From Opitutaceae bacterium (GTDB lineage Bacteria; Verrucomicrobiota; Verrucomicrobiia; Opitutales; Opitutaceae), in the NCBI GenBank assembly GCA_018667915.1, contig JABIRI010000134.1, positions 1 through 38,360 of the forward strand: 38,360 bases of DNA, read 5' to 3'. Each line of letters starts with the position of its first letter. Position 1 is the stretch's first letter. Made by a program: the position numbers and the translations under genes. A model generated the notes under the pieces. The model was not told the DNA's origin. It was given only the letters and a program-made list of their open reading frames with translations, and searched no databases. This document shows positions 7,725 through 23,049 of this stretch, piece by piece.

Positions 7725-8753
7725 TCAATCTATCGGCGGCCGTAAGGTCGGCGAGACTGAAAGTCCTATGCGTCCGGTGCTGTCCGGGTTCTCGACCCGC
7801 CAAACGAGGTGGGCGATGACCTTATGGATCAGCGTGGAAAGATTAATATCAATAGAAGCAGGATGATGTTCTAAATTGTTGTATATGAGCGGATTGAAAT
7901 TTCCGAGAATGACTTCAAAGTCCTTGCGATGCTCCAAGCCGGCGTTGCGGAGGGTGCGGAAGAAGGCTCCAGCGAAGTGATCGACCGGAATGTAAAGGCC
8001 ACTGGAGCGGGGAGTCTGTTGGGTCAACCGGCGGACCAACTGTTCAGTTTCACTGTTGAGCGGATCAATTTGCAGGTAGCTTACGCCAGGGTCTTCCTTG
8101 CCCAGAATACTGTGGGCCTTGAGTCCGAGTTCCTCGGCTCGCTTGATGAACGCTCCGACGCGGCGAACGTTGGCACTGTAGCCCGGATCCGTGGTGAGAA
8201 CGGCCACGGTCTTGTGGCCTTGTTTGGCCAAATATTCGGCGGCAATTCGACCATTTTCTTCGTTGTTTGGTTCGACGAAATCACCGGGAAATTCTTCTGA
8301 CCGACGAGTCATGAACCATACGGTGGGTAAATGCTTGAGTTTTGCCAACACCTCGGGGGCGGGTTCCATCCCCTGAATAATGATACCATCCAACTTCTCG
8401 GTGGTCAGCGCGCGAGGAAGTTCCCGCGGTGAATTCGAAAAGAGCATGTGCAAATCGACATGATTTCGCGGATTACGCTCCTGCAAGTCGGTGATGCGTT
8501 CCTGAAACCAATTGAGGCTCGGGTTGCCGGCTTTCGCTCCTACGAACCAAACTCCCAGACGTAGTGTGGTGGGTTTTTTTGTTTTCGGCCCCCGGCGCCG
8601 ATTGAGGGGAGCAGGCGTGTAATCATGCTTCTTCATCACGGCACGAATGCGCGCCAAACTTTCGGGCGCGACGATCTCGGGCTGGTTGATTGCGCGGGAC
8701 ACCGTGGAGGGGGATACGGAGGCCTGCTTAGCGATATCTGCGATAAGCATCAT
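7725..8753 (-). CDS. LacI-family transcriptional regulator
   Basis: This is a sugar-responsive repressor. The N-terminal helix-turn-helix reads IADIAKQASVSPSTVSRAIN, followed by the hinge helix region and a periplasmic-binding-protein-like effector domain (LRLGVWFVGA, LDGIIIQGM, GHKTVAVLTTDPGYSANVRRVGAF). I chose the paired ATG codons at 8753/8750 because the helix-turn-helix must start within a few residues; a longer frame to 8807 adds non-homologous residues and would cover the promoter. Product 342 residues. The gene has its own terminator and probably its own operator (8752-8789), suggesting autoregulation. Dyads of the same type precede the GH78-like operon and the symporter operon. Among known LacI proteins the closest role would be a local regulator of glycan use; the effector is unknown. 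Confidence 0.9.
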   Translation of the reverse strand: MMLIADIAKQASVSPSTVSRAINQPEIVAPESLARIRAVMKKHDYTPAPLNRRRGPKTKKPTTLRLGVWFVGAKAGNPSLNWFQERITDLQERNPRNHVDLHMLFSNSPRELPRALTTEKLDGIIIQGMEPAPEVLAKLKHLPTVWFMTRRSEEFPGDFVEPNNEENGRIAAEYLAKQGHKTVAVLTTDPGYSANVRRVGAFIKRAEELGLKAHSILGKEDPGVSYLQIDPLNSETEQLVRRLTQQTPRSSGLYIPVDHFAGAFFRTLRNAGLEHRKDFEVILGNFNPLIYNNLEHHPASIDINLSTLIHKVIAHLVWRVENPDSTGRIGLSVSPTLRPPID

Positions 8754-9231: not shown

Positions 9232-11697
9232 GTGCAAGTGCCTCCCGATTCTCCCTCAATCTCTCGTCCGTTCATCAAACGCTCTGCTTGGATCTGGTCC
9301 GAAGAGGGCACCCATGCGGTCCCGGCAGTCGATGCTCGATCTCCATCGCACTACCAAGTGCGCCGGTTTCAGCTTTCCTTTGATCTAGCGGAGGCGGCAG
9401 AACGTGAATGCTTGGTCCATGTCAGTGCGGACAGCCGTTTTCTGTTCTACTGTAATGGTGTCCTGCTGGGGCGCGGACCTGCGAAGGGGGATATCAACCA
9501 TCATTTTTACGATACGTTCGATTTAGTGCCTCAGTTGCGGCCGGGAAAAAATGTCCTGTCAGCGTTGGTATGGGACATGTCACATGTGGCTCACCGTCCG
9601 ACCGACTTAGGCGCCCCGTGTTCGGTCATGACTTACGCGGGCGGTTTCTTGTTAGAGGGACAGGTTCCGCAGAATGGGGCGGACCACGTTCTAGATACCG
9701 GCACTGCCCCTTGGCGCGTTGCTGTAGATACGGAGCATCGTTTTCAAAACGACGGGACGCGGTTCGAGGGTTATCACGGATATTTCGAAGAGCGCCATGA
9801 TTCCGACTCGACCGGAACCTGGTATGCCTCCGAGCAAGTTGGTGACGAGTGGAAATCTGCGCGCACCCTGTATTTGGCCGAATGCCTCGAGGAGCGACGA
9901 GATCCCACCAGTCCTTATGGTCTCGTCCCGCGGATGATTCCGCAACTAACCGAAGGCGATCCGGTCAGGTTTGATAGCGGGTTCCACCCGGGTGGAGCCG
10001 ATTTGGCGTCGGAGTGGGCGTCCGTAATCCGTAATGACGGTGCGCCCGTGGTGGTGCCGCCCCACTCGCGAGTCGAAGTCATCTTGGATACCGGTGTGAT
10101 TACGACAGGCTATCCGCGCATCGTTGCCTCCGGCGGGGCCGATGCGAAAATCCGACTTACCTACGCCGAAGCCCTTCGGCTCCCTTGGGACACGCCGGAT
10201 GCCGTGTTATTGGGCGAACAGCAACCCCTCGAAAACCTCGCTTCACATTTTGCGGACGAAGGCACGGGCTGGACGTTTGATCGCCGCGGTTTGATTCATG
10301 GCTGGTCCGATGTTTGGCGCCCGGCTGGTCCGGATACGACTTATGAGCCCCTGCATTGGCGGGCGTTTCGGTATGTCGGCATCACCATCGAAACCGGTGA
10401 TCAGCCGTTTTCGTTATCAGGTGTTTTCTATCGGTATTCAGCCTATCCCTTCGAAACTAAGGCGCAATTCAAGTGTGATGATCCGGGACTAGAGCGCATC
10501 TGGGATGCGGGATTGCGCACGATGCACCTCTGCGCACACGAGACCTTCGAAGACTGCCCCCACTACGAACAAATGCAGTATGCGGGCGATACGATGATCA
10601 CGTCTCATCTCGGTATGTTAACGGCGGGGGATGAGCGCCTCAGTCGACAATCCTTGTATCAATTTGATTGGTCCCGTGGTCCAGACGGATTGACCGAAAG
10701 CCGGTTTCCCTCGCGACTGCGGCAGGTGATTCCTTCCTGGAGCCTGCACTGGATTACTACGATCCGTGATTTCGCCCTGTGTAGTGGCGATTTAAATACC
10801 GTCTCCGAACTGTTGCCGGGAGCGAAGGCAGTGATTGATTGGTTCCGCCGCTATCGGGATTCAAGTGGTTTGCCGGCGAAGTTGCCTTACTGGAATATTA
10901 CCGATTGGTGTCCGTGGTGGCCTCGCGGTGTGGTGCCGGGGGCTGATTCGGGTCCAACTTGTATTATATCTGCACAGTGGATTCAGGGATTGGGAGAAGT
11001 GGCTCAACTGTGCGAATGGGTCGGCCAAACTGCGGAGGCGGATTTGTTGCGCGACGAAGCAGAGACGGCTCGCAAGATTCTGCACAAGACATTTTGGTCC
11101 GAAGAAGAGGGGCTTTATTTCGATCGGCCGGGTGGTCCGGAAGTAAGCCAGTATGGTAACGCATGGGCGGTGATGTGTGGCGCGGCCGACGATGCTACCT
11201 GCGAACAACTGCGGGCCCGTTTCCCCAGAGATCCATCTCTCGCGCCGGGGTCATTCTTTTGCTGGCATGCCGTATTTAATGCTATGGAGCGCATGGGCAC
11301 CTACGATGAAATGACCGAGTCGTTGGGGCCATGGCATGAATCGATCAATCTGGGCCTCGATACATTCGTGGAAGAGAACAGTTACTGGCGCTCCCTGTGC
11401 CACGCTTGGAGCTCCCATCCGGTGTTGGAGTTCCTGCATCGTGTCTTGGGTATCCGTTCGACTTCGCCGGGGTTTGCCACCATACGGATCCGTCCGTTTC
11501 CGGGCAAACTCAAGCGGGCTTCCGGTCGGTTGTGCACGCCGCGCGGTTATGTCTCGGTGAACTGGCAACGGATCGACCAATCCTTTGCCATCGAAATTGA
11601 TTCCCCGTCGGATACTCCGGTTGAAATCGTGCTGCCCGACGGATCAACCCACACTTCAAACGGTGGGACTTGGAAACATGGGGAGGTTTCCGCATGA
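9232..11697 (+). CDS. GH78-like alpha-L-rhamnosidase family protein, cytoplasmic
   Basis: This 821-residue enzyme has the domain order of GH78: an N-terminal jelly-roll sugar-binding part (FLFYCNGVLLGRGPAKGD), a second beta domain, an (alpha/alpha)6 barrel and a C-terminal beta-sandwich. The motif DCPHYEQMQYAGDT starts at residue 441. Its D441, E446 and D453 have the same spacing as Asp567, Glu572 and Asp579 of Bacillus RhaB as I recall them, so inverting hydrolysis of alpha-L-rhamnose or a related sugar is likely. No signal peptide is seen, so it acts on imported oligosaccharides. The GTG at 9232 is used because a stop precedes it in frame and no ATG is suitable; GTG at 9238 is an alternative. 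It opens an operon: the next gene overlaps by ATGA. The motif differs from the textbook DCPxRDER form, so another terminal sugar is possible. Confidence 0.82.
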   Translation: MQVPPDSPSISRPFIKRSAWIWSEEGTHAVPAVDARSPSHYQVRRFQLSFDLAEAAERECLVHVSADSRFLFYCNGVLLGRGPAKGDINHHFYDTFDLVPQLRPGKNVLSALVWDMSHVAHRPTDLGAPCSVMTYAGGFLLEGQVPQNGADHVLDTGTAPWRVAVDTEHRFQNDGTRFEGYHGYFEERHDSDSTGTWYASEQVGDEWKSARTLYLAECLEERRDPTSPYGLVPRMIPQLTEGDPVRFDSGFHPGGADLASEWASVIRNDGAPVVVPPHSRVEVILDTGVITTGYPRIVASGGADAKIRLTYAEALRLPWDTPDAVLLGEQQPLENLASHFADEGTGWTFDRRGLIHGWSDVWRPAGPDTTYEPLHWRAFRYVGITIETGDQPFSLSGVFYRYSAYPFETKAQFKCDDPGLERIWDAGLRTMHLCAHETFEDCPHYEQMQYAGDTMITSHLGMLTAGDERLSRQSLYQFDWSRGPDGLTESRFPSRLRQVIPSWSLHWITTIRDFALCSGDLNTVSELLPGAKAVIDWFRRYRDSSGLPAKLPYWNITDWCPWWPRGVVPGADSGPTCIISAQWIQGLGEVAQLCEWVGQTAEADLLRDEAETARKILHKTFWSEEEGLYFDRPGGPEVSQYGNAWAVMCGAADDATCEQLRARFPRDPSLAPGSFFCWHAVFNAMERMGTYDEMTESLGPWHESINLGLDTFVEENSYWRSLCHAWSSHPVLEFLHRVLGIRSTSPGFATIRIRPFPGKLKRASGRLCTPRGYVSVNWQRIDQSFAIEIDSPSDTPVEIVLPDGSTHTSNGGTWKHGEVSA

Positions 11698-12551
11698 GTG
11701 CATTATTACGGTTAGATGATTCCACCCCCGGGAGGCTTACCATCGGCTTAGGCGAGGACCGCCATCTCTGGTCGTATTGCTTCGAACCGGAAACACCGGC
11801 GAAGGAATCTACGCGGCCGTATATTCACCCTCTGTATTCGATCGATGGAGACGTTTTGACCAATCTCCGGCCCAATGATCACCCGTGGCACCACGGCATC
11901 AGTTTTACGCTGACCTCGGTCAATGGAGCAAATTTTTGGGGCGGTCCTTCCCACCGGGCGGAGGACAGTTACCAGTGGCGTCCAGATCATGGAACGCAGC
12001 GTCATCTCGAGTGGTTGGAAAAGACGCCTGGACAGTTAGTTGAGCGCTTGGCGTGGATCGATCCTCAGCGGGAAGGATGCATCCTTATTGAGGAAAAGCG
12101 CACGTTGCGCACGAACCATCAGGAAGATGGCTGGGGGTTGCGTTGGACGAGCCAAATCCACAATCCCGGTGTGGAAGATCTGATCTGCGAAAACTACCAC
12201 AGTTTGGGAGGCTTGGAAGGTTCTCACTACTCGGGTCTGCAATACCGCGGGACGCGCGAATTTTTACACCAGCACGGAGATGATTCGATTAAGATGCTCG
12301 GAGAATGCGGTTCCAGTGAATTGGATGAGTTGCACGGGCACTCCGCGAACTGGCTGGAATGGCAGGGACAGGTCGATACCACGCTGCGCCGAACCCGCAT
12401 TCGTTTTGAGTCGCTGAGCGGTCCGATCCCGTGGTTTGTGCGCCCCAACGACCCGATGGTTGCGTTTGCCCCTCACCGGGAAAAGCCGTTAGTTATATCT
12501 GCCGGTCAGACGGTGATGTTTGACCACGCCCTAAATTTCCTCCGCGCATGA
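11694..12551 (+). CDS. DUF6807 (PmoA-like) family protein
   Basis: The 285-residue protein matches the family once labelled methane oxygenase PmoA, now DUF6807, which has no connection to methane oxidation in such loci. The signature NDHPWHHGI (about residues 61-69) contains His63, His66 and His67, and is preceded by RPYIHPLYSIDGDVLT. The fold is expected to be a mutarotase-like beta-sandwich. No signal peptide. The start at 11694 overlaps the stop of the GH78-like gene (ATGA); an upstream in-frame ATG at 11670 lies inside that gene and is less likely. The stop overlaps the next start, again by ATGA, so the three genes should be translationally coupled. The family is frequent in carbohydrate loci of Bacteroidota, Planctomycetota and Verrucomicrobiota, and its reaction is unknown to me. 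Confidence 0.8.
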   Translation: MSALLRLDDSTPGRLTIGLGEDRHLWSYCFEPETPAKESTRPYIHPLYSIDGDVLTNLRPNDHPWHHGISFTLTSVNGANFWGGPSHRAEDSYQWRPDHGTQRHLEWLEKTPGQLVERLAWIDPQREGCILIEEKRTLRTNHQEDGWGLRWTSQIHNPGVEDLICENYHSLGGLEGSHYSGLQYRGTREFLHQHGDDSIKMLGECGSSELDELHGHSANWLEWQGQVDTTLRRTRIRFESLSGPIPWFVRPNDPMVAFAPHREKPLVISAGQTVMFDHALNFLRA

Positions 12552-13819
12552 ATATAAATCGTAAAACTTTTCTGCGTAACCTTGGTCTTGGTATCGCCGG
12601 GGGCGGAGCCACTCGGGCCTTCGCTCAGAATTGGGAACTCCCTCAATATCTCGCGAATAACCCGAAGCCTTTTTGGTCTGCGATCCGTCGGGGTTACGAT
12701 ATCGAGGCGGATTTTCGTTATTTGAATTCGGGTGGGCTGGGTCCTTCTTCGCGAGCGGTTAAAGCTTACACGACCCAGATCGAAAACGAACTCGAGGCGC
12801 GGGTCGAAACCGGTCACGATCTATTGGAGGGTGCGCGAGTCGATGTGGCTGATTTTTTGGGAGCCGCGGCCAACGAAGTTACCTTCGTGCGCAACGCCAC
12901 GGAGGCAAACGGAATCATCGCCGGTGGCATTGAGCTAAATCCCGGCGACGAGGTTATTTTTGAATCCCACGCCCACCCGGGTGGTTCGTTTCCCTGGTTA
13001 CTGCAGGCCGAAAAACGTGGCGTGAAAGTGCACTTGTTTGAGCCGGATCCTGAATCGATTTCCGGCAACATTGGGCGGATCGAAGAACTTGTCACCGCGC
13101 GCACGAAAGCGGTGCAGGTTTCCCATATCACGGCCCCAACCGGTATCTTGCTTCCGGTGCGGGATATCGCGTCGCTGTGCCGGGCGAAAGGCATCTGGTT
13201 TCATGTGGATGGGGCACAATCCGCCGGTATGATCCCCATCAATTTCGCCGAAATGGGATGCGACTCTTATGCCACGAGCGGCCACAAATGGGTAGGAGCT
13301 CCCCGTGAAACCGGCGTGCTGCTCGTCAAACGTAAGCGTCAGGATGCGGTGAAATCCGTGATGGTCGGGGCCTACTCGGCGGGGTTGGAAGAACTTCCCG
13401 GAAAACTTGATTATTATCCCGGCGCAATGCGTTTTGAGTATGGCACCCGCGACGTTCCCCGCGTCATGGGGATGGTCGAGGCGATGCGTATTCAGGAAAT
13501 GATTGGTCGGGAACGAATCGCGGGACACGGGCGCTCGTTGGTCGCCCGACTGCGGCAGGGTATAGAAAAAATTCCGAGTATTGAGGTGCTTTCTCCCCGT
13601 CATCCTCAACTGAGCAGCTCGATGTTAAGTTTTCGCACTCCTCAATTGGGTTATCGCGATATGTTTAGCACGTTAGTGAATGATTTTGGACTACGCTGCC
13701 GACCGGTATCGGAGCAGGGCCTCGATGCCGTGCGGGTGTCGTGTCACGTATTTAATACCGTCGACGATATCGACCACCTGATCCACGCGATCAAAATGAC
13801 CGTTGAGGCCAACGCATGA
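12548..13819 (+). CDS. Exported class V aminotransferase-fold PLP enzyme
   Basis: A 423-residue fold-type I PLP protein of the class V group (cysteine desulfurase / isopenicillin N epimerase-like). Visible features are the phosphate-binding and cofactor region VRNATEAN, Asp221 in FHVDGAQSAG (cofactor ring nitrogen) and Lys247 in SGHKWVGAP (Schiff base). The N-terminus NRKTFLRNLGLGIAGGG resembles a Tat signal with RK instead of RR and ends at FAQ, so the enzyme is probably exported, which is uncommon for PLP enzymes and would suit Tat since the cofactor is loaded in the cytoplasm. It is the third gene of the GH78-like operon. Convergent with it, 17 bp away, is a RidA-like gene whose family detoxifies enamines released by PLP enzymes. 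Substrate unknown; an amino sugar or amino acid released in the periplasm is possible. Confidence 0.82.
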   Translation: MNINRKTFLRNLGLGIAGGGATRAFAQNWELPQYLANNPKPFWSAIRRGYDIEADFRYLNSGGLGPSSRAVKAYTTQIENELEARVETGHDLLEGARVDVADFLGAAANEVTFVRNATEANGIIAGGIELNPGDEVIFESHAHPGGSFPWLLQAEKRGVKVHLFEPDPESISGNIGRIEELVTARTKAVQVSHITAPTGILLPVRDIASLCRAKGIWFHVDGAQSAGMIPINFAEMGCDSYATSGHKWVGAPRETGVLLVKRKRQDAVKSVMVGAYSAGLEELPGKLDYYPGAMRFEYGTRDVPRVMGMVEAMRIQEMIGRERIAGHGRSLVARLRQGIEKIPSIEVLSPRHPQLSSSMLSFRTPQLGYRDMFSTLVNDFGLRCRPVSEQGLDAVRVSCHVFNTVDDIDHLIHAIKMTVEANA

Positions 13820-13836
13820 ACTCGCGGTCGAATCCT

Positions 13837-14361
13837 TTATTTGATCTCCACGATCAGCGCAATCTCGACGCTCGCGTCGAGGGGGAGGGATCCGGCGCCG
13901 ATGGCCATGCGGGCGTGCCGGCCTTTGTCGCCAAAAATTTCAACAAGCAGGTCGGAGCAACCGTTGATCACCTTGGATTGATTGGTGAAGTCCGTCGGGC
14001 AGTTTACAAATCCTTCCACCCGCACGATGCGCTGCACGCGGTCGAGCGAACCGATCTCGCTGCGCAACGTGGCGAGCAATGCCAGGGCGGTGCGCTTGGC
14101 GGCGTGTTGGCCTTCCTCAAGCGTGATATCGACGCCAACTTTGCCGGTTATAAATTCGCCCGCTTTGTTCTTGGGAATGTGTCCGGCCAGAAAGACCAGA
14201 TTGCCCGAGCGCACTGCCGGCACGTAGTTCGCGACCGGCTTCGAGGTTTTAGGCAATTCGATTTTCAGCTCCACCAGACGCTCTTCTGCCGTTCCGGCGC
14301 TGACGCCAGAAATTACCACTGCACTCAAAATTAGTCCGCCCCAGATTTTTCTAAGATTCAT
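13837..14361 (-). CDS. Exported RidA-family (YjgF/UK114) protein
   Basis: A 174-residue protein with an N-terminal signal peptide (MNLRKIWGGLILSAVVISG) and one RidA domain. The residues used by active RidA enamine/imine deaminases appear conserved: Arg151 in RHARMAIGAGSLP and Glu166 in DASVEIALI. I chose the ATG at 14361 because it gives the signal peptide; the frame runs on upstream but only as antisense to the propeller gene. RidA proteins are normally cytosolic, so export is notable. The gene sits alone on the minus strand inside a plus-strand series, convergent with the exported PLP enzyme (17 bp) and divergent from the propeller gene with only 12 bp between start codons. A role in handling reactive products of the neighbouring PLP enzyme is an inference from context. 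Confidence 0.85.
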   Translation of the reverse strand: MNLRKIWGGLILSAVVISGVSAGTAEERLVELKIELPKTSKPVANYVPAVRSGNLVFLAGHIPKNKAGEFITGKVGVDITLEEGQHAAKRTALALLATLRSEIGSLDRVQRIVRVEGFVNCPTDFTNQSKVINGCSDLLVEIFGDKGRHARMAIGAGSLPLDASVEIALIVEIK

Positions 14362-14373
14362 CCCATTATCCCT

Positions 14374-15414
14374 ATGCAATCTACCCCTCACCGCAACTGC
14401 TTTACTCGACTGACCGCGCTCGTGGTCGCGTTGGGGAGCTCCGCCCTCGCCGCCGTGGCGGCTCCGGCCTACGATTTTTTTATCTGTGCCAATGTAAACC
14501 AAAACTACGTGATTGGTTCGAAGATCGATACTACCAACGGGTTGTTTCGACATGATTCCGCGAATAATACGTGGCATCATTTCGGCTACAATGATCGCAC
14601 CATTTCGGCGGTGGCGGTCGATCCCCGGGATCACGACACGATTTACACCACCACGCTGAATGGCATTTGGGTGAGTTACGACGGGGGCGACACCTGGAAA
14701 ATGACCAACAGCTGGGATATGACCGAAGGGCGTGACGTCGCGGTCGATCCGCAGTCGCCGGATACCGTTTATTTCGCTTTGCCCGATGGTATCGCCGTAT
14801 CCACCGATCGGGGACAAAAATGGGAGCGGCGCGAGAACGGATTACCTGATCGCGGTAAGTTTACCCAGGCGATCTCCCCCGACCGAGTCATCGCGGATCG
14901 CGTTTTAGCGGGATGCGAAAAAGGCATCTATCTTACGGAAAATGCAGGTCGGTCATGGCGGCAGGTTTTGCCCACTGAAACCACGGTCAATGATCTCGAA
15001 CAATCACCTCACGATGCCGACCGTTGGCTCGCGGTCACCGATACGCACGGCGCCTGGCAGTCGCATGATAACGGGGAAACGTGGAACCTGATTACTGACC
15101 TTCCGAATGATCGGGCGATTTACAATGCTACCTACGACCCAACCACTCCGGGTCGCCAAGCAGTGGCCAGTTGGGCTCATGGTGTTTGGACGAGTGAGGA
15201 TGGCGGTGCCAGTTGGGCGCAACGTAGCGCCGGACTGCCGGAGAAGCCCAAGGCTTGGCGGGTTGGGGTGGATCCCAATTCCGGTCGACTCTACGTCAGC
15301 GTATTCGAGGACACCCTCTATTACTCCGATGACTTTGGCCGCTCCTGGGAGCCCGATGTATTGGCCGGATCTTCAGTAAACGCCTTTTTATCCATCCGTC
15401 GCGAAAACCCCTAA
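14374..15414 (+). CDS. Secreted beta-propeller with six Asp-box (BNR) repeats
   Basis: The 346-residue protein has a signal peptide (ending near AAPAYD) and six Asp-boxes of the S-x-D-x-G-x-x-W type: SYDGGDTW (101), STDRGQKW (143), TENAGRSW (188), SHDNGETW (230), SEDGGASW (274) and SDDFGRSW (318). Their regular 42-45 residue spacing indicates one complete six- or seven-bladed propeller. Asp-boxes stabilise propeller folds in sialidases, xyloglucanases and many binding proteins and are not catalytic, and no sialidase Arg triad or FRIP motif is seen. It may bind or cleave a glycan outside the cytoplasm. The next gene follows after 6 bp. The start lies only 12 bp from the divergent RidA start, so its promoter must overlap that gene. 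Confidence 0.8.
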   Translation: MQSTPHRNCFTRLTALVVALGSSALAAVAAPAYDFFICANVNQNYVIGSKIDTTNGLFRHDSANNTWHHFGYNDRTISAVAVDPRDHDTIYTTTLNGIWVSYDGGDTWKMTNSWDMTEGRDVAVDPQSPDTVYFALPDGIAVSTDRGQKWERRENGLPDRGKFTQAISPDRVIADRVLAGCEKGIYLTENAGRSWRQVLPTETTVNDLEQSPHDADRWLAVTDTHGAWQSHDNGETWNLITDLPNDRAIYNATYDPTTPGRQAVASWAHGVWTSEDGGASWAQRSAGLPEKPKAWRVGVDPNSGRLYVSVFEDTLYYSDDFGRSWEPDVLAGSSVNAFLSIRRENP

Positions 15415-15420
15415 ACCACG

Positions 15421-17331
15421 ATGAAACCCTTTACCTATCTTCTTAAACCCATCGCTTCAGCGGCCATCGCGTTGGTGGCGACGGGAATCTCCCTCCACGC
15501 ACAACCCTCGGCCCAAGGTCCCGCTTCCCGGGAAGTCGTCGAAAGTGTCGATGAACGCCGCAACCAGTATCTGGCCCGGGTGCGTGAGATGCAGGACCAC
15601 CGCGTGGGTCTTTATCACGAAGATAATTATGCGCGTATCGATAACTCTGCCATGGCCATCCTCCTCATGCGGGGTGATGAAATCGAAGCCTGCAATCGTA
15701 GGGTGCTCGAGCTCATGGAAGAGCCCGGCACGGGTCCGTTCTGGATGTTCCCGACGGCCATGGTGGCGTATGCCGGACGTGATAAGCTGTCGGACGAAGC
15801 GCGTGGAGCCATCCGCGATGCTTGGCGCACGACCCGTCAATTACGGGGTGATACCGAGAACCATTGGGTGATGTATCATGCCGCCATGTATTTGATGGCG
15901 CAGATGTATCCTGATGAGCCGGGTTCGGAGTGGTGGAACGGACTCAGCTCCAGTGAGAACTTGGAAGAAGGCCGCTCGTGGTTGCTTGATTGGATGGATA
16001 TCACCACGACGATCGGGCAGGGAGAATACAACCCGACGCACTACATCGGTGAATACGCGATCCCGCTGCTCATGCTCTCGGTATGGTCGGAGGAACCGGC
16101 GATGCGCCAACGCAGTCGTATGCTGCTCGACTGGTTGTTTGCTGAGCTCGCAACGGTCACCCTTGACGGCATGTTGCGCGGCCCAAACTCGCGGACGGAC
16201 GACACCTCGGTAGTCGAGCGTTGGTATGCGCTGGCCAACTACTTTTCTTGGCAACTCTTCGGCAACATTCCGGCTGGGGAAGGATTCCGTGGTTGGGGCT
16301 GGGGAAACTATTTTTCGGTGCTCGCAGAGTATTATGACGTGCCCGAGGTGATTTACCGTATCGCGGTGGATCGAAAGCACGACATCCTACAACGCGACCG
16401 CGCCCGTTCACGGCGGATTTGGCGTTATGGTGATGAGCACATGCGGCCGATTTATAAGACACAGTATTTACGTGATGAATACGCGGTCGGTTCCCACCAA
16501 GGGGGCATAAGCGATCCCATCCAATCACACGTTTGGGATGTTACTTGGACGGTTGATGACCCGCGTGGCGTGCACAATACGATGTTCTCCCTGCATCCGC
16601 ACTCGTCCGGAAAGGTGATGCAAATGTTCTTTTGCACCTACCCTGAGCCGATGCCTCATGCGGTGACCTATGAGGGTAAACCCTCTTACAACTCGGCCAA
16701 TAAACTGCTCGGCTGCTCGCCTTACGAAGAAGTCGTGCAGGATCTCGATACAGTTATTGCTCTCTACGATATCGATCCCGAGGCGAACTTTCCGCAAGTG
16801 AACGGATTCTTTTCCAAAGATCTCTCTGATGTGACCGAGCACAACTCGGGATGGATCTTCGCGCGCGGAGGCACGACCTACTTGGCCTATCGCCCGCTGG
16901 CTGATTATCATTGGCAGCCGCACATCCGCTACCCGAACGGTCGCGACCCGACCGTTACGGAGGAAACGGGTGGACGGATTCTCACCAGCCCGCACGTCAA
17001 GAATGGCACGATTCTGCAAGCTGCCGACGGCGATGAGTTCACCGATATGGTTGCGTTTCAAAGTGCGATCCTGGCTTTGCCGCTCAGCTACGAGTTGGAT
17101 CCGGTGCCCTCAGTGCGGTTTACCTCCCTACGCGGTAAAGAGATCGTCGCCAAATACGGAGAGACCCCTTATATCGATGGTCAGCCGATCAACTATGGCG
17201 ACTGGAAGCTGTTCGAAGGTCCGCATCTGAATAGTGAGGTAGGCAGCCGGGTTTTGACGATCACCCATGGCCCTCTCGGCCGGGTGCTCGATTTCAACAC
17301 GCTGTCGTCCACCGATATCGTGTTGGAATAA
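15421..17331 (+). CDS. Secreted protein of unknown family, probable helical toroid plus beta-sandwich
   Basis: A 636-residue protein with a signal peptide (cut near SLHAQ). Residues about 40-330 are helical with repeated aromatic motifs (HWVMYHAAMYLMAQM, NYFSWQLFGNIPAGEG, GWGWGNYFSVLAEYYD), like the (alpha/alpha) barrels of polysaccharide lyases and GH88/105-type enzymes. The C-terminal part is strand-rich (HNTMFSLHPHSS, NSGWIFARGGTTYLAYRPL). This layout resembles lyase-type enzymes, but no established catalytic motif was recognised. It lies 6 bp after the propeller gene and 22 bp before the GH127 gene, within one transcript. It is a good candidate for an unclassified carbohydrate-active enzyme in this locus. 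Confidence 0.6.
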   Translation: MKPFTYLLKPIASAAIALVATGISLHAQPSAQGPASREVVESVDERRNQYLARVREMQDHRVGLYHEDNYARIDNSAMAILLMRGDEIEACNRRVLELMEEPGTGPFWMFPTAMVAYAGRDKLSDEARGAIRDAWRTTRQLRGDTENHWVMYHAAMYLMAQMYPDEPGSEWWNGLSSSENLEEGRSWLLDWMDITTTIGQGEYNPTHYIGEYAIPLLMLSVWSEEPAMRQRSRMLLDWLFAELATVTLDGMLRGPNSRTDDTSVVERWYALANYFSWQLFGNIPAGEGFRGWGWGNYFSVLAEYYDVPEVIYRIAVDRKHDILQRDRARSRRIWRYGDEHMRPIYKTQYLRDEYAVGSHQGGISDPIQSHVWDVTWTVDDPRGVHNTMFSLHPHSSGKVMQMFFCTYPEPMPHAVTYEGKPSYNSANKLLGCSPYEEVVQDLDTVIALYDIDPEANFPQVNGFFSKDLSDVTEHNSGWIFARGGTTYLAYRPLADYHWQPHIRYPNGRDPTVTEETGGRILTSPHVKNGTILQAADGDEFTDMVAFQSAILALPLSYELDPVPSVRFTSLRGKEIVAKYGETPYIDGQPINYGDWKLFEGPHLNSEVGSRVLTITHGPLGRVLDFNTLSSTDIVLE

Positions 17332-17353
17332 CCGTTAGATTTGGCCGCTGCTG

Positions 17354-19264
17354 ATGCCTACCCCGACTGCATTGCCCCTCGCCGCCGTTCGCCTCATGGG
17401 AGGCGTGTTGGGCGAGCGGGTAGAGAGGGTTGGCAAAGTGACGCTGTTGCGCCAATGGGATGCGTTGAATGATCGTATCCCCGGCGCTGAGCCCAGCCAT
17501 GCGGTGCGAAATTTCCGCATCGCGGCCGGTGACGAAGAAGGTGAATACGATGGACTGTGGTTCCAGGATTCGGATGTCGCGAAATGGTTGGAAGCCGCGT
17601 GTTATCGCATGAGTTTTGCTCCCGACCAGCGATTAGTCGCGGCGGTGGATGAATTGGTGGATCTCTACGAGCGGGCGCAGGAGGATGACGGGTATTTACA
17701 CACTTATCATCAACTCACCCCGGGCGCCGAACGCTGGTCGAATCTGCGTGATCTCCACGAACTCTATTGCGCGGGCCATTTTATCGAAGCTGCGGTGGCG
17801 CATTTCGACGTGACGGGTTCGATCCGATTGAGGACCGTAGCCCAAAAATTGGCCGACCTCCTGTGTCGCACTTTCGGTAATGCCGACGGACAAATCAGGG
17901 CGTATCCGGGACACCCCGAATTGGAATTGGCGTTAGTAAAACTGGCGCGAGCGAGTGGAAAAAAATGCTACCTGGATTTGGCAGACTTTTTTGTGCGGGA
18001 GCGGGGATGCGAACCTCATTACTTTGTGGAGGAGGCTCAGGGTCGTGGGGAAACGAAATCGCCCGTGTGGGCGTATTATGACGAGCAGGCCTATTGGCAA
18101 AGTCACGTTCCCGTTGTGGAGCAAACGGAGCCCCGTGGCCATGCGGTCCGCGCCATGTATCTTTACGCAGCGATGGCGGATCTGGCCCGAGAAACCGGCG
18201 CCGTCGATATGGCCGAAAGCGGTGTCCGACTTTGGAACGAAATGGTTGCCAAACATCTCTACATTATCGGTGGAGTGGGGGCGGACGGTCCCGGAGGTGA
18301 AAATTTTTCCGCCCCCTACGATCTTCCTGACGACCGTTCCTATGCGGAAACATGTGCGGCGATTGGTCTCATGATGTGGGCGCGTCGATTGCTCGACCTA
18401 CGCTTGGATGCGCGTTTTACGGAGGTGATGGAACGGGCGCTCTACAACAATGTGCTCGCGGGGCTCTCACAGGATGGTTGCCACTATTTTTATGTGAATC
18501 CCTTGGCGGTGAATCCCGGAGAAACGCGCCGTCGCTACGATTGTAAAATGGTCAAGACTCAACGCGTGCCGTGGTTTGGCTGTGCCTGTTGTCCACCTAA
18601 TGTGGCCCGACTGTTGTCTTCATTGGGGCATTATGCCGTTAGCCGCATCACCGGCGGTTTGGCCGTGCATTTGCTCACTCCGTTGGAGCTCGATAACGAC
18701 GGATGGCGGCTGCGAATTGAAACGAATTATCCGTGGACGGAGGCGGTGGAAATTGAAGTCAAGAGAGCGCCGGAGGGTTGCACGACATTGGCCGTTCGCG
18801 ATCTAGAGGCGACCTGGTTCCTCAACGAGGAACCCCTCGAAGAGACTTCGATTTCGGGCTATTTGAAACTCACCCGTGAATGGCAGGTGGGCGATTGCCT
18901 TTCCGCGAATATTCCTCTGCCGATCGAGCGCGTGCGAGCGCATCCCCGTGTCACTTCGGCCAGCGGGCGCGTGGCTCTGAAGCGCGGTCCGGTGATATAT
19001 GCCGTGGAGGAGGCCGACCATGGTGTGGGCCTGACAAGTTTAGGCGTGAAACGTGATGCCGTGCTCCGGGCGGACACCGATCCGCGTTGGGGAGTTACCG
19101 TTCTCACGGGAGATGCGGTGCGCGAATCTTCTCCGGCTACCCTTTACCAATCGGATCAGAATCCACAGTTTGAAACGACCTCCTTGCGGGCCATTCCTTA
19201 CGCATGGTGGGGCAACCGAGGCGAAGGCGAAATGAGAATATGGATACGGGATTACGAATCATGA
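17354..19264 (+). CDS. GH127 beta-L-arabinofuranosidase family protein
   Basis: A 636-residue protein of the GH127 (DUF1680) family. The zinc and catalytic residues of Bifidobacterium HypBA1 (Glu338, Cys340, Cys417, Cys418) correspond to Glu332 and Cys334 in YAETCAAIG and Cys412-Cys413 in CACCPPN; in HypBA1 a Cys of the CC pair is the nucleophile. Length and order (helical barrel, then beta-sandwiches) are typical. No signal peptide is seen, so it works in the cytoplasm on imported sugars. GH127 enzymes remove beta-L-arabinofuranose, for example from hydroxyproline-linked arabino-oligosaccharides of extensin or from rhamnogalacturonan II; some members act on other sugars. The stop overlaps the next start by ATGA, coupling it to an exported M28 peptidase. 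Confidence 0.92.
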   Translation: MPTPTALPLAAVRLMGGVLGERVERVGKVTLLRQWDALNDRIPGAEPSHAVRNFRIAAGDEEGEYDGLWFQDSDVAKWLEAACYRMSFAPDQRLVAAVDELVDLYERAQEDDGYLHTYHQLTPGAERWSNLRDLHELYCAGHFIEAAVAHFDVTGSIRLRTVAQKLADLLCRTFGNADGQIRAYPGHPELELALVKLARASGKKCYLDLADFFVRERGCEPHYFVEEAQGRGETKSPVWAYYDEQAYWQSHVPVVEQTEPRGHAVRAMYLYAAMADLARETGAVDMAESGVRLWNEMVAKHLYIIGGVGADGPGGENFSAPYDLPDDRSYAETCAAIGLMMWARRLLDLRLDARFTEVMERALYNNVLAGLSQDGCHYFYVNPLAVNPGETRRRYDCKMVKTQRVPWFGCACCPPNVARLLSSLGHYAVSRITGGLAVHLLTPLELDNDGWRLRIETNYPWTEAVEIEVKRAPEGCTTLAVRDLEATWFLNEEPLEETSISGYLKLTREWQVGDCLSANIPLPIERVRAHPRVTSASGRVALKRGPVIYAVEEADHGVGLTSLGVKRDAVLRADTDPRWGVTVLTGDAVRESSPATLYQSDQNPQFETTSLRAIPYAWWGNRGEGEMRIWIRDYES

Positions 19265-20649
19265 AAAACCTACAAAAACTTATAATCGGTGGCATCGCGT
19301 TGACGTTGTCGCTCACGCCACTGGTTGGCGCCATCACGCCGGCCGAAGTGGCGGCCCGGGTGGCGACGGATGATGTGACAGTCAAATTCCTCGAAATGCT
19401 GTGCGACGATCACGGCGGACGACTTACGGGTCACCCGGCAAATGAAGCCGCCATGGTCGATTTGGAGGCAGCGTTGCGCGAATTGGATCTCAATCCGACG
19501 CGCGAGAACTTTCCCATGCGCGGTTGGGTGCGGGCCGATGACACCCTCACAATGAATGGTCCGGTTACGCGGGAAATGCGCGCGATTGGAATTGGTTACA
19601 TCGAGCCGACCGGCCCGATCGCGGGACCGGTGGTGGATCTTGGAGCGGGTGGTCCGGAGGCGTTTGAACGTGATTTTCCGGCGGGCGCGATCGGCCTTTT
19701 CGGCCCCAGTGCGAAGGGGCGCACCGATGAGGTCAGTGCGCGGGCGGTTGAGCACGGTTTGTCGGCTTTGATGTTTATCAACCGGGTGGGGGGAGGTCAG
19801 CTCCTCGCGCGGACTGGCGGATTCCACGGCGAGTCTCTACCCTTGCCGGTATATTCCATTACGCAGGAAGAAGGTTTTTGGATGCGCCGATTGATTGTCC
19901 GTGACGTCGCGGTGGAGGTTGGGCTGCAGGCTCGCTCCTACACCAAGCCAATCGAAACCAGTAACCTGCGGGTGCGCATTCCGGGTCGCTCGAAGGAGAC
20001 GGTATTGGTCGGGGCTCACTTTGACAGTTGGGACCAAGGTCAAGGCGCGATCGATAACGGTTTGGGTATCGCGCAACTACTCGCCATCGCTCGCGTGCTG
20101 CGCGACGAGGAACTCGAACGCACCGTCGAACTGGTCTGGTATAACGGCGAGGAACAGGGCCTCTGGGGATCGCGTTATGCGATCGAATCGGGGGTGGATG
20201 CGAAGAATCCGCCCGTCGTTATGCTCAACCTCGATATGGTCGGTGTGCCGATTGCGGTGAACGCGATGGGCCACGATGATCTATTACCCGTGCTGGAGCG
20301 ATGGAACAGCAGTCGAGGCGACGCGGCCCTGGAGCAGGGCGTGCAAAACAAATCATGGGTCGCGAGCGATCATACTCCTTACCAAGTAAACGGCGTTCGT
20401 ATCATCACGTTCAACGCGCCGATCGACCACGATTCTGTGCGCTACTACCACGACTTTGGTGATACCTACGACAAACTCACGCCCGAGTTGATCAAAGACT
20501 CCGCGGCCACGATCGCCTCGTTGGTGGTCGAGCTGGCGCAGGTCGCCGACTTGCCGACGGGGACATTACCCCCGGCCGAAGTCGAAGCCCTTTTACTCAA
20601 AGCCAAACTCGATAGCCGTCTGAAGGCTACGGGCATGTGGAAATTTTAA
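19261..20649 (+). CDS. Exported M28-family metallopeptidase
   Basis: A 462-residue zinc aminopeptidase-type enzyme. The start at 19261 overlaps the GH127 stop (ATGA) and gives a clean signal peptide (MKNLQKLIIGGIALTLSLTP); a longer frame from 19204 would lack one. The five metal-binding positions of clan MH are visible: His253 in GAHFDSWD, Asp265 in GAIDNGLG, catalytic Glu297 with Glu298 in NGEEQGLWG, Asp325 in NLDMVG and His397 near the end. A PA-like insert (about residues 110-230) precedes the catalytic part. It should release N-terminal residues or cleave dipeptides in the periplasm. Its place between GH127 and a second peptidase suggests that the substrate has a peptide component. Confidence 0.88.
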   Translation: MKNLQKLIIGGIALTLSLTPLVGAITPAEVAARVATDDVTVKFLEMLCDDHGGRLTGHPANEAAMVDLEAALRELDLNPTRENFPMRGWVRADDTLTMNGPVTREMRAIGIGYIEPTGPIAGPVVDLGAGGPEAFERDFPAGAIGLFGPSAKGRTDEVSARAVEHGLSALMFINRVGGGQLLARTGGFHGESLPLPVYSITQEEGFWMRRLIVRDVAVEVGLQARSYTKPIETSNLRVRIPGRSKETVLVGAHFDSWDQGQGAIDNGLGIAQLLAIARVLRDEELERTVELVWYNGEEQGLWGSRYAIESGVDAKNPPVVMLNLDMVGVPIAVNAMGHDDLLPVLERWNSSRGDAALEQGVQNKSWVASDHTPYQVNGVRIITFNAPIDHDSVRYYHDFGDTYDKLTPELIKDSAATIASLVVELAQVADLPTGTLPPAEVEALLLKAKLDSRLKATGMWKF

Positions 20650-20663
20650 ACCCGATCATTATC

Positions 20664-21449
20664 ATGAAACGCTCCTGTCTCTTCGCCTTTGGTCTTTTGT
20701 TCGCCACTCCATCGTTTGCTCAAAACACCGATTGGATGACCTCGCCCCGCGCCTCGATTTTAGCGGTGGGAGGTTCGATGATGAACGGCAACCATTTCGC
20801 CGATGCGACTCTCGAGGTCATGCGGGAGCACTATGCCGGCACCAAGACGGTCGCATTGGTTTTGCATCCCTCACATGTCGTCGATCGCGACAAAATGGAA
20901 CGGCGACTGAAGGAAGCCTTCATGCACCTCGGCGGGCAAGACGCGTTTTCATTGCACCGGTTCGATACAGCCGAAGCCAACCGCCGTCTTGCCGAAGCCG
21001 ATGCGATCTTTGTGGGTGGTGGCGATACGTTCATGTTGCTCCGTGAATTTTATGAAACCGGCCAACTCGGGATCATCCGTCAACGCGTGCTCGAAGGGGT
21101 GCCATTGGCCGGCAGCAGCGCGGGCGCTAATATTTGTGGGCCTGTGATTGGCACCACCAATGATTTTCCGGTTACCGATGTCCCGACGCGCCGTTCGCTC
21201 GCGATCATTCCGGTCGTGATCAATCCGCATCACCCGCGTGCTGACCAGCAACCCGAGCACGACAGTCGCGCTTGGAAGATCCGCAATTACCTGCGTTGGA
21301 ATCCCACCGAACGTGTGATGGCCCTCGGTGACCGTGCTATGATTCGCCTGCACGAAGGCGAGCTCACCATCGCCCTCGGTCCCGCTTGGGAATACCGCTC
21401 GGGCAAAACCACCCCGCTGAAAACTGGCGACAAAGTGGAATTGGAATAA
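20664..21449 (+). CDS. Exported peptidase S51 (dipeptidase E / cyanophycinase-like)
   Basis: A 261-residue protein with a signal peptide (cut near SFAQN). It carries VGGGDTFMLL (117-126) and the nucleophile elbow AGSSAGANI with Ser152, plus INPHHPRADQQ with the probable catalytic His189 or His190. These are the hallmarks of family S51, which includes dipeptidase E (Asp-Xaa dipeptides) and cyanophycinase (beta-Asp-Arg). The start at 20664 was preferred over 20637, which lies in the end of the previous gene and spoils the signal peptide. It follows the M28 gene after 14 bp and ends the series at a hairpin (21480-21506). Together the two peptidases could finish an Asp-containing or isopeptide-linked substrate. 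Confidence 0.83.
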   Translation: MKRSCLFAFGLLFATPSFAQNTDWMTSPRASILAVGGSMMNGNHFADATLEVMREHYAGTKTVALVLHPSHVVDRDKMERRLKEAFMHLGGQDAFSLHRFDTAEANRRLAEADAIFVGGGDTFMLLREFYETGQLGIIRQRVLEGVPLAGSSAGANICGPVIGTTNDFPVTDVPTRRSLAIIPVVINPHHPRADQQPEHDSRAWKIRNYLRWNPTERVMALGDRAMIRLHEGELTIALGPAWEYRSGKTTPLKTGDKVELE

Positions 21450-22194: not shown

Positions 22195-23049
22195 TCAGGC
22201 TGCGGGTTCGCCGAATTCGTAGGTAAGTTGCCAGTCGCGATGTGCTCCGGGTGTGAGGTCGAGTAGTTGGTAGGGTTCGATCGAGAAAGTGAATCCGTTC
22301 ATCCAGATCGGACATTCCGATAGCACAAAATTGGTGGTGAATTTGATTCCGTCGGATAGTCGTGGATGCCCGATTGTGCATTCGAGTTTCGTGCCGGTGA
22401 CACCATCGAGCAGCACAAAGGCGCCGTCGTCTTTGCCGATGTATTCGCGGCTGGGTGTGAGCACGCCTCCGTTGAATTCGAATCCCGAGTCCGGTGATAG
22501 TGACGCGTTGCGGGGTAGCTCTACGCGAAGGCTCGCGTTTTCTCCTAAGGCGAAGAACGGATGGGCGAACCACTCGAAATGCATCGGCTGGTCACTGAGA
22601 TTCAGGAGGCGGCTTTGACTGCGCAGGACCCGTCCATCGAGCTCAACGATGCGGGTAACTTCACACGCATAGCCGGCCGCTTGGTGGCGGGTGCGAAACT
22701 CGACCCGGGTGGACTGAGCATCGATGTGCCAGAAACACGGTTCGACGACGGCAATAGTTTCGTCCACTCGACCGAGTTTACCCACTCCAGGAGCGATACC
22801 TTCGTCGCCTTGCCAAAGCCATTTTTGGCCGGCGCGGGACCGATCCCGAAAAGATTCAGGAAGGCCGTGGCCGTTAAATGGCTCGGGATTGGGCTCAACG
22901 CCTTCGGGGCCACTGAGCAACGGCCCGGCGACATGGTCGTGGACCTGCCAAATGAAACCACCGCTACAAAATCGAGGTCCGAGCCGAGAGATATCGGCGA
23001 CGGGGTCGAGCAGATCAACGCGCAGGGAGTCGTTGGCGAGGGAAAGCAT
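22195..23049 (-). CDS. Galactose-mutarotase-like protein
   Basis: The 284-residue protein is strand-rich and resembles the galactose mutarotase / aldose 1-epimerase superfamily: N-terminal LANDSLRVDLLDPVADISRLGPRF, a central strand pair with MHFEWFAHPFFAL (His residues near 157-164) and a C-terminal WQLTYEF. The canonical mutarotase catalytic pair cannot be assigned with confidence, so it may be a sugar-binding or epimerase relative. No signal peptide. It is the last gene of the symporter-dehydrogenase operon, 11 bp after the dehydrogenase. A role in converting sugar anomers for the dehydrogenase is plausible from context only. Confidence 0.6.
   Translation of the reverse strand: MLSLANDSLRVDLLDPVADISRLGPRFCSGGFIWQVHDHVAGPLLSGPEGVEPNPEPFNGHGLPESFRDRSRAGQKWLWQGDEGIAPGVGKLGRVDETIAVVEPCFWHIDAQSTRVEFRTRHQAAGYACEVTRIVELDGRVLRSQSRLLNLSDQPMHFEWFAHPFFALGENASLRVELPRNASLSPDSGFEFNGGVLTPSREYIGKDDGAFVLLDGVTGTKLECTIGHPRLSDGIKFTTNFVLSECPIWMNGFTFSIEPYQLLDLTPGAHRDWQLTYEFGEPAA

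What the first reader, a model, noticed from the sequence alone, without database searches (positions are those of the whole stretch)
9232..21449. Glycosidases coupled with two exported peptidases: a possible glycoprotein-degradation locus
GH127 enzymes are known from hydroxyproline-linked beta-L-arabino-oligosaccharides of extensin. Here GH127 is coupled by ATGA to an M28 peptidase, followed by an S51 peptidase, with a GH78-like enzyme, TonB receptor and LacI regulator nearby and GH51 about 15 kb away. The combination suggests use of an arabinosylated protein such as an algal or plant cell-wall glycoprotein, which is not a described verrucomicrobial system to my knowledge.
Basis: inference. 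Interest (0 to 1): 0.62.

Follow-up and report, generated by a model that had tools for sequence, protein, structure and literature searches.

The report
Conserved Opitutaceae glycan-and-peptide degradation locus
A conserved set of genes in freshwater and soil Verrucomicrobia pairs an unrecognised lyase-like protein with exported peptidases and amino-acid-handling enzymes, probably to eat a sugar polymer that carries amino acids; the arabinose enzyme that first drew attention looks like an optional extra.

Summary
The reported genes are real: GH127 (17354-19264) overlaps an exported M28 peptidase by ATGA, S51 follows, and GH78-like, TonB receptor, LacI and GH51 lie where stated. The conserved core is these plus M28 and GH78-like, not GH127. 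NOV636's predicted fold is nearest to glycosaminoglycan and alginate lyases. NOV636 and BNR occur in the same 11 of 103 order-level genomes; paralogues are fused in three genomes. M28 and PLP (over 40% identity) share 10 genomes, 9 with NOV636. GH127 is in 4 of those 11, and in 23 of 43 loci holding both PLP and M28. A perfect 12-bp palindrome marks the lacI-operon gap, the SSF symporter, an amidohydrolase-DegT cluster and a GxGYxYP pair in the three genomes of the genus examined. Best reading: a LacI-type regulon for a uronic-acid glycan bearing amino acids or peptides, with arabinose side chains in some members. Extensin is not specifically supported. No activity was tested; substrate and PLP reaction are inferred.

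The parts
9232..11697 (+). GH78-like six-hairpin glycosidase, no signal peptide seen (start GTG uncertain)
   Evidence: PF17389 85.6 bits, PF17390 48.4 bits; in 41 of 43 loci with PLP and M28
11694..12551 (+). DUF6807 protein, ATGA-coupled to GH78 and to the PLP gene
   Evidence: PF14100 178.8 bits; junctions; 41 of 43
12548..13819 (+). class-V PLP-dependent enzyme with Tat-like signal (SufS/PvdN fold)
   Evidence: PF00266 187 bits; R at 5 in 57 and R/K at 6 in 55 of 59 rows, PLP lysine K247 in 59 of 59; AF2 pLDDT 87.3, SufS Z 45.5, PvdN Z 44.7
13837..14361 (-). RidA/YjgF-like protein with signal-peptide-like N-terminus, opposite strand in the PLP-BNR gap
   Evidence: PF14588 82.8 bits, scanned as the longer ORF; start; same slot and strand in 41 of 48 loci
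14374..15414 (+). exported beta-propeller (BNR/sortilin/Ycf48/GH74-like), partner of NOV636
   Evidence: PF15902 75.7 bits; PDB relatives GH74-type and Ycf48; same 11 of 103 genomes as NOV636; paralogues fused to NOV636 paralogues in 3 genomes
15421..17331 (+). NOV636: exported protein without Pfam match, predicted alpha/alpha toroid plus beta domain, lyase-like
   Evidence: no Pfam, no significant PDB sequence match; AF2 pLDDT 87.9; all 24 Foldseek hits at E<=0.001 are polysaccharide lyases; VIA best GAGase VII Z 11.4, 421 aligned, rmsd 5.6; GDTENH invariant in 117 of 117 ungapped rows, Y208 in 120 of 120
17354..19264 (+). GH127 beta-L-arabinofuranosidase-like, no signal peptide; accessory member of the locus
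   Evidence: Geobacillus GH127 588 bits; E316, E332, C334, C412, C413 invariant in 25 rows
19261..20649 (+). exported M28 metallopeptidase, ATGA-coupled to GH127
   Evidence: coupling; H263, D275, E307, E308, D335, H407 invariant in 47 rows (numbering from 19231; ligand role recalled)
20667..21449 (+). exported S51 peptidase, PepE (aspartyl dipeptidase)-like
   Evidence: PF03575 111 bits; PepE NCBIfam 132 of 156 needed; S151, D166, H188, H189 invariant in 34 rows (roles recalled)
7725..8753 (-). LacI-family regulator (longest ORF reaches 8807)
   Evidence: PF00356 50.6 bits
8762..8773 (.). perfect palindrome ATGAAATTTCAT, 9 bp upstream of the probable lacI start, in the lacI-GH78 gap: putative operator
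   Evidence: 0 in 100 shuffles of the window; 9 sites in the genome, reversed control 0; in the lacI-GH78 gap of L059, L176 and L177
26159..26170 (.). second perfect ATGAAATTTCAT, 112 bp upstream of the SSF gene
   Evidence: 44-112 bp upstream of SSF in L060, L061, L176, L177
24134..26047 (-). SSF sodium:solute symporter, probable regulon member
   Evidence: PF00474 160 bits; palindrome upstream
22195..24137 (-). 284-aa protein without family (w22) and GFO/IDH/MocA oxidoreductase, downstream of SSF; membership uncertain
   Evidence: w22 in 16 and GFO in 12 of 75 relatives
4185..7589 (-). TonB-dependent receptor, divergent from the operon
   Evidence: PF07715 Plug 44.3 bits; a TonB receptor next to LacI in relatives, sequence little conserved
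1314..4082 (-). GxGYxYP putative glycosidase (1314-2987) and 183-aa protein w4 (3531-4082); 3053-3508 between them unassigned
   Evidence: a second w4-GxGYxYP pair elsewhere carries the palindrome in three genomes of the genus
36140..37696 (-). GH51-like alpha-L-arabinofuranosidase; its relatives lie inside the operon beside GH127 in other members
   Evidence: PF06964 160.7 bits; ArfA NCBIfam 225 of 625 needed

Best explanation
The block is a catabolic locus under a LacI-type regulator, the centre of a scattered regulon, for a uronic-acid-containing glycan that carries amino acids or short peptides. Proposed order of steps: a TonB receptor imports oligomers; in the periplasm NOV636 (lyase-like fold) with its propeller partner BNR cuts the chain; exported M28 and S51 peptidases free amino acids; an exported PLP enzyme acts on the released amino acid or amino sugar, and the exported RidA-like protein clears its enamine or imine product. 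The SSF symporter moves sugars inward, where cytoplasmic GH78-like, DUF6807 and, in some members, GH127, GH51, GH36 or GH43 enzymes trim them and a sugar-acid and amino-sugar pathway finishes. Shown here by computation: gene content, synteny, co-occurrence, fusion of paralogues, predicted fold, export signals (by rule of thumb), palindrome. Inferred: that NOV636 is catalytic, the substrate, the PLP and RidA reactions, and that this LacI binds the palindrome.
For: Gene order conserved (42 of 43; closed same-genus genomes G183 and G348). NOV636 and BNR in the same 11 of 103 genomes, neighbours in 98 of 115 copies in the named loci, paralogues fused in 3 genomes. M28, and PLP over 40% identity, in the same 10 of 103, 9 shared with NOV636 (hypergeometric 2e-10; relatedness not corrected); in the closed genome G032 the genes are far apart yet all present, in G028 and G095 on different contigs. 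All 24 Foldseek hits at E<=0.001 are polysaccharide lyases; invariant Asn-His and an invariant Tyr 60 residues on. Heparinase II/III-like proteins beside NOV636-BNR or M28 in other families. Palindrome: 9 sites in each of three genomes of the genus, 0 reversed controls; in all three at the lacI-operon gap, SSF, amidohydrolase-254aa-DegT//epimerase and w4-GxGYxYP; also upstream of NOV636 paralogues or fusions in G183 and G348, and at the starts of NOV636 or BNR genes in L108, L114, L128. Homologues of palindrome-marked genes lie beside RidA-PLP (G032, G078, G099) or NOV636-BNR (G040, G095) in other families.
Against: No activity data. The fold match is remote (TM 0.28-0.41 among the 24 hits, 8-12% identity), active-site geometry was not mapped, and the helical half alone also matches glycosidase toroids (endoglucanase CelA Z 10.2 over 236 residues), where Z under about 13 may be only a common arrangement. 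M28, S51 and PLP could serve general peptide use: in G032, G078 and G099 S51 sits by a second PLP gene, in G032 also an OPT transporter; the M28 beside RidA-PLP in G032 and G078 is only distantly related (72-73 bits). 20 of 75 named loci show no PLP or M28, some of them on short contigs; G031 and G040 have NOV636 but no close M28 or PLP, G078 the reverse. PLP is missing from the fetched stretch of G191. Two palindrome sites in G183 and four in G348 have no matching neighbour; eight genomes of other genera have 0 (seven) or 1 site, so the regulon evidence is mainly from one genus; G183 has a second LacI beside such sites.
Confidence: 0.43

Rival explanations
1. Hydroxyproline-rich glycoprotein system: GH127 and GH51 strip Hyp-linked arabinosides, GH36 removes serine-linked galactose, peptidases digest the protein.
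For: GH127 with conserved Glu/Cys site; GH51 always with GH127 where present (18 of 18); a Melibiase (L064) and a GH43 (L070) gene downstream in relatives; glycosidases beside a putative peptidase known in Xanthomonas (PMC6085000).
Against: GH127 not found in 20 of 43 loci with PLP and M28 and, at E 1e-80, in 7 of 11 order-level genomes with NOV636; no endoprotease among scanned window ORFs; does not explain NOV636, BNR, PLP, RidA.
Confidence: 0.13
2. Arabinogalactan-protein or gum-type substrate: GlcA, Rha, Ara and Gal side chains on a protein core.
For: One substrate would combine uronic acid (NOV636), rhamnose (GH78-like), alpha- and beta-Araf (GH51, GH127), galactose (Melibiase in a relative) and peptide.
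Against: No galactanase family recognised among the window ORFs scanned; amino-sugar genes at palindrome sites of this genome are not explained; GH78-like is far from the rhamnosidase equivalog cut-offs.
Confidence: 0.2
3. Amino-sugar (GAG-like or bacterial capsule) polymer without peptides: PLP and RidA deaminate an amino sugar acid, and M28/S51 are amidases or recycling enzymes.
For: Best folds are GAG lyases; GlcN6P isomerase and GlcNAc 2-epimerase (this genome) and DegT (three genomes) next to palindrome sites; a PLP deaminase with a RidA protein in amino-sugar-acid catabolism is known, the RidA role there unknown (PMC9537276).
Against: Two peptidase families with conserved catalytic residues; that chitin pathway is cytoplasmic and fold-type III.
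Confidence: 0.15
4. Loose neighbours: unrelated catabolic genes kept together by descent within Opitutaceae.
For: Most loci are from one family; relatedness inflates co-occurrence.
Against: Co-occurrence across families f1, f3, f8, f21 and, in closed G032, without linkage; joint absence in three f1 genomes (G050, G091, G102); fusions; shared palindrome.
Confidence: 0.09

Closest known systems
PL33/PL35/PL17/PL8/PL12-type lyases with alpha/alpha toroid (e.g. GAGase VII 8khw, Alg17c; PL numbers partly recalled)
   Same: Overall predicted fold; invariant Asn-His and a Tyr 60 residues later, a spacing like that of H202/Y258 of Alg17c or H202/Y257 of heparinase II, residues mutated in PDB entries listed
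   Different: No sequence similarity detected by HMMER; BNR propeller partner, adjacent or fused
HRGP beta-arabino-oligosaccharide system (HypBA1/HypBA2/HypAA) of Bifidobacterium and Xanthomonas
   Same: GH127, an alpha-arabinofuranosidase and a nearby peptidase
   Different: Core here is lyase-like protein, propeller, PLP, RidA and M28; GH127 optional; GH121 not tested
ong cluster for oxidised chitin (Pseudoalteromonas)
   Same: PLP enzyme and RidA protein with an SSS-type symporter in one sugar-catabolic cluster (PMC9537276, passages)
   Different: Cytoplasmic, fold-type III PLP enzyme; here exported, fold-type I, with peptidases
PvdN (periplasmic PLP enzyme of pyoverdine maturation)
   Same: Tat-like signal, class-V fold, VIA Z 44.7, tied with SufS and C-DES
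   Different: NCBIfam PvdN 93 of 650 bits needed; catabolic context
Noncontiguous operon
   Same: A gene on the opposite strand inside a run of co-directional genes, in the same slot in 41 of 48 loci
   Different: Overlapping transcripts not shown

Membership tests
GH127 beta-L-arabinofuranosidase | GH127 catalytic domain and Glu/Cys zinc-nucleophile site | tested here: met
   Pfam 321.5 bits; residues invariant in 25 rows (roles recalled)
GH127 beta-L-arabinofuranosidase | activity on beta-L-Araf | not testable with these tools
   needs assay
GH127 aceric acid hydrolase | NCBIfam NF049879 cut-off 950 bits | tested here: not met
   355 bits
HRGP arabinoside system | GH121 beta-L-arabinobiosidase | not tested
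   no GH121 model or sequence used
HRGP arabinoside system | GH127 consistently present in the locus | tested here: not met
   23 of 43 relatives with PLP and M28; 4 of 11 NOV636 genomes at E 1e-80
Polysaccharide lyase (alpha/alpha toroid plus beta domain) | fold | tested here: met
   AF2 model, Foldseek best E 3.2e-07, VIA best Z 11.4 over 421 residues at rmsd 5.6; remote
Polysaccharide lyase (alpha/alpha toroid plus beta domain) | sequence match to a known lyase family | tested here: not met
   21 members against Pfam; profile against PDB; CAZy not available
Polysaccharide lyase (alpha/alpha toroid plus beta domain) | catalytic Asn/His/Tyr in the cleft | tested here: inconclusive
   N147, H148, Y208 invariant but not mapped in 3D
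SufS cysteine desulfurase | NCBIfam TIGR01979 cut-off 475 bits | tested here: not met
   156 bits
SufS cysteine desulfurase | catalytic Cys | tested here: inconclusive
   window has C384 at the aligned place; Cys in 52, Thr in 5, Leu in 2 of 59 rows
PvdN | NCBIfam NF051467 cut-off 650 bits | tested here: not met
   93 bits
RidA/YjgF | Pfam YjgF domain above cut-off; conserved Arg | tested here: met
   82.8 bits, cut-off 35; R151 invariant in 40 rows (role recalled); NCBIfam TIGR00004 only 30 of 106
Bacteroidetes-type PUL | SusC/SusD pair | tested here: not met
   TonB receptor present, no SusD hit among window ORFs scanned
Noncontiguous operon | one transcript antisense to the embedded gene | not testable with these tools
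   needs RNA data; gene layout met

The most novel reading that the evidence does not exclude
NOV636-BNR is a new two-part (sometimes fused) polysaccharide lyase family, and the exported PLP and RidA pair carries out a periplasmic elimination or deamination on amino acids bound to, or just freed from, the glycan, for example from O-glycosyl-serine or uronic-acid amides: glycoconjugate catabolism that uses PLP chemistry outside the cytoplasm, under one LacI-type regulon that also holds amino-sugar and sugar-acid enzymes.
Probability: 0.22. Interest if true: 0.82.

Novelty: new variant of a known kind. Interest (0 to 1): 0.58.

Why it matters
If right, it gives an unnamed protein family (381 encoding stretches found) a testable role as lyase, adds amino-acid chemistry to what a glycan-degradation locus can do in the periplasm, and hands experimenters a short operator sequence that predicts which genes join in. 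My literature searches returned no description of it (listings seen only, open-access PMC papers only).

Tried and rejected
Rejected: RG-II via aceric acid hydrolase (355 of 950 bits). GH127 as the key enzyme. ORF 13816-14334 (+) as a gene: it is antisense to the RidA-like gene. Early counts of RidA and BNR were too low or wrong in part, because over-long ORF starts made neighbours overlap and an untrimmed RidA query matched antisense of BNR; recounted without the overlap filter.

Led nowhere: NOV636 sequence searches of PDB; promoter and terminator scan no better than shuffles; literature searches for a Verrucomicrobia GH127/Hyp system, exported RidA, Opitutaceae lyases, or class-V aminotransferases with M28. 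Fold search did not separate cysteine desulfurase, C-S lyase and PvdN for the PLP enzyme. The 2-mismatch palindrome search was not significant (4 found; 10 of 100 shuffles reach that); only the exact form is. A search for other perfect palindromes in the lacI-GH78 gap of 18 loci gave no common motif outside the genus.

Bias and limits: the 75 named loci are the best 80 of 381 by similarity to the window's NOV636, so they favour close kin. The 103 order genomes and 387 phylum genomes were drawn evenly from larger groups. RidA presence alone is not diagnostic: 66 of 103 genomes have some RidA match. Of the 11 order genomes with NOV636, M28 or PLP lies within the fetched neighbourhood in 5, all of family f1; G099 and partly G095 and G028 are on short or end-of-contig pieces, so linkage there is unresolved. 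The crude signal rule was passed by 71 of 120 NOV636, 17 of 59 PLP, 30 of 40 RidA, 28 of 47 M28, 25 of 34 S51, 47 of 98 BNR and 0 of 25 GH127 ORFs, many with wrong starts; the window's own PLP failed it and is called exported only from its Tat-like motif. GH78-like and DUF6807 were checked in the window only.


Full report
What is there. The window is contig C302 of a 4.28 Mb, 361-contig genome; the nearest named relatives by NOV636 are Opitutaceae and other Verrucomicrobia MAGs. Reading + from 9232: GH78-like, DUF6807, PLP enzyme, [RidA-like on minus], BNR propeller, NOV636, GH127, M28, S51. Three junctions are ATGA overlaps (GH78/DUF6807, DUF6807/PLP, GH127/M28). LacI, a TonB receptor and GxGYxYP run the other way on the left; w22, GFO and SSF run the other way on the right. 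In the window, GH127, GH78-like and DUF6807 show no signal peptide; RidA, BNR, NOV636, M28 and S51 show a hydrophobic N-terminal stretch and PLP a Tat-like motif. Across homologues the crude rule was passed only in part (counts under Tried and rejected).

Is it conserved? In 103 order-level genomes drawn evenly, NOV636 occurs in 11 and BNR in the same 11. M28 occurs in 10. PLP reaches the threshold in 13; the 10 above 40% identity are the same 10 as M28, the other 3 are at 28-30%. NOV636 and M28 share 9 genomes; G078 has M28 and PLP without NOV636, G031 and G040 have NOV636 without them. The genes are clustered in 5 of the 11, all family f1. In closed G032 they are far apart (PLP 1.43 Mb, NOV636 1.40 and 1.51 Mb, M28 3.38 Mb); in G028, G095 and G099 they are on different contigs, some short. 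S51 occurs in 7, 6 of them with NOV636. GH127 at E 1e-80 occurs in 8, only 4 of them with NOV636. In 387 phylum genomes NOV636 or a distant relative occurs in 32, 22 of them of the window's family.

Named loci. Of 381 relatives the best 80 gave 75 loci. BNR is found in 74, PLP in 51, M28 in 47, GH78-like and DUF6807 in 46 each, RidA in 45, S51 in 32, GH127 in 30, GH51 in 20. In the 43 with both PLP and M28: BNR 43, GH78-like 41, DUF6807 41, RidA 36, S51 27, GH127 23, GH51 14; order kept in 42, the exception (L077) having only a weak M28 fragment. In loci with PLP or M28, GH51 always comes with GH127 (18 of 18): an arabinose cassette between NOV636 and M28. 20 of the 75 show neither PLP nor M28, some on contigs of 3-12 kb. 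Of 8 loci fetched from the family in the phylum sample, closed same-genus G183 and G348 have the window's gene order unchanged, five more show the locus in whole or part (PLP missing from G191's stretch), and G413 has only the NOV636-BNR pair.

NOV636. No Pfam family matches it or 20 homologues and no solved structure matches by sequence. The AF2 model (pLDDT 87.9, pTM 0.87) has a helical toroid and a beta-rich half. All 24 Foldseek hits at E<=0.001 are polysaccharide lyases, led by GAGase II, a chondroitinase and alginate lyases, with TM-scores of 0.28-0.41. VIA gives GAGase VII Z 11.4, rmsd 5.6 over 421; dermatan sulfate epimerase, PL17 and PL8 enzymes follow within 1.5 Z, but so does endoglucanase CelA over 236 residues of the toroid (10.2), and glucuronyl hydrolases reach 9. 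So this is shared architecture, not proof of activity. GDTENH is invariant in 117 of 117 ungapped rows, and E202, Y208 and R258 in 120 of 120. Paralogues of NOV636 and BNR (346-354 bits, against 1505 for the window's own) form one chain in G035, G183 and G348.

Amino-acid side. The PLP enzyme has the SufS/PvdN fold; its lysine is invariant, while the desulfurase cysteine position is Cys in 52 of 59. The RidA-like gene sits on the opposite strand between PLP and BNR or NOV636 in 41 of 48 loci; in the other 7 it was not found there. This layout resembles a noncontiguous operon (term in 24 papers, listing only), but there are no transcript data. M28 and S51 keep their presumed catalytic residues.

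Regulon. ATGAAATTTCAT occurs exactly at 8762, just before lacI, and at 26159, before the SSF gene; no shuffle had it. The genome has 9 sites and none of the reversed control; same-genus G183 and G348 have 9 each; of eight genomes of eight other genera, seven have 0 and one has 1. In all three genus genomes it marks the lacI-operon gap (in G183 it lies 121 bp before GH78 rather than at lacI), SSF, the amidohydrolase-254aa-DegT-hydroxyacid dehydrogenase//epimerase cluster and a w4-GxGYxYP pair; in G183 also a second locus with NOV636, LacI and TonB receptor, and a fusion, in G348 a fusion. Six of the 75 named loci hold it, at lacI (L059), SSF (L060, L061), NOV636 (L108, L114) or BNR (L128) starts. 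In the window's genome it also marks a GlcN6P isomerase//GlcNAc 2-epimerase pair, GFO oxidoreductases, an amidohydrolase//aminotransferase-M81 group and an enolase-superfamily//SDR-PALP group, not found at palindromes in the other two genomes. Unmatched sites: two in G183, four in G348. No match to the window's LacI lies in the six fetched stretches around the other sites of this genome, some only 7-11 kb long; G183 has a second LacI beside two sites, so paralogues may share the motif. Independent support: homologues of palindrome-marked genes lie beside RidA-PLP in G032, G078 and G099 and beside NOV636-BNR in G040 and G095.

Interpretation. A lyase-like core with exported peptidases, PLP and RidA and an amino-sugar and sugar-acid regulon points to an amino-acid- or amino-sugar-bearing uronic glycan; arabinose enzymes are member-specific. 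The precise substrate is open: AGP-like, GAG-like and HRGP-like readings are ranked as rivals. Precedents: HRGP enzymes beside a putative prolyl oligopeptidase gene in Xanthomonas (PMC6085000, abstract and passages); a cytoplasmic PLP plus RidA sugar cluster, with the RidA protein OngD needed but of unknown role (PMC9537276, passages); PvdN as a PLP enzyme acting on pyoverdine (PMC7497351, passages); beta-L-arabinofuranosidase families (PMC10850190, passages).

Noticed in passing
13837-14361 (-): Exported RidA-like gene on the opposite strand inside the operon in a conserved slot (41 of 48 loci): a candidate noncontiguous operon.
   Followed up: partly
8762-8773, 26159-26170; genome contigs C26, C93, C200, C304, C307: Perfect palindrome ATGAAATTTCAT, 9 sites in each of three genomes of the genus, linking scattered catabolic operons.
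   Followed up: yes
26286-29719: Mannosyl-3-phosphoglycerate phosphatase and synthase with a divergent MGH1-like mannosylglycerate hydrolase: apparent synthesis and breakdown of a compatible solute side by side.
   Followed up: no
29817-33033: DUF455, PhyH dioxygenase and AraC genes whose relatives recur beside RidA, PLP or M28 in G032, G095 and G099 and near NOV636 in some named loci.
   Followed up: partly
33079-33797: CopG-like antitoxin and PIN-domain protein: probable toxin-antitoxin pair.
   Followed up: no
6-1088 (-), cut by the contig end: 361-aa fragment without Pfam match, related by phmmer to heparinase II/III-like proteins that neighbour NOV636 or M28 in other genomes.
   Followed up: partly
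33835-36270 (-) and 22198-23049 (-): 812-aa and 284-aa proteins without Pfam or NCBIfam match that recur near the locus in relatives.
   Followed up: partly
G000:C310:25544-27397 (L016, L051): Second NOV636-BNR pair in the same genome (37% identity), without PLP or M28 in the 20 kb fetched.
   Followed up: partly
L197:2660-3995: Class-III aminotransferase read in two overlapping frames beside a palindrome site: possible frameshift or assembly error.
   Followed up: no
L135, L138, L141: S51 beside a second, different class-V PLP gene in three genomes, with an OPT oligopeptide transporter in L135.
   Followed up: partly
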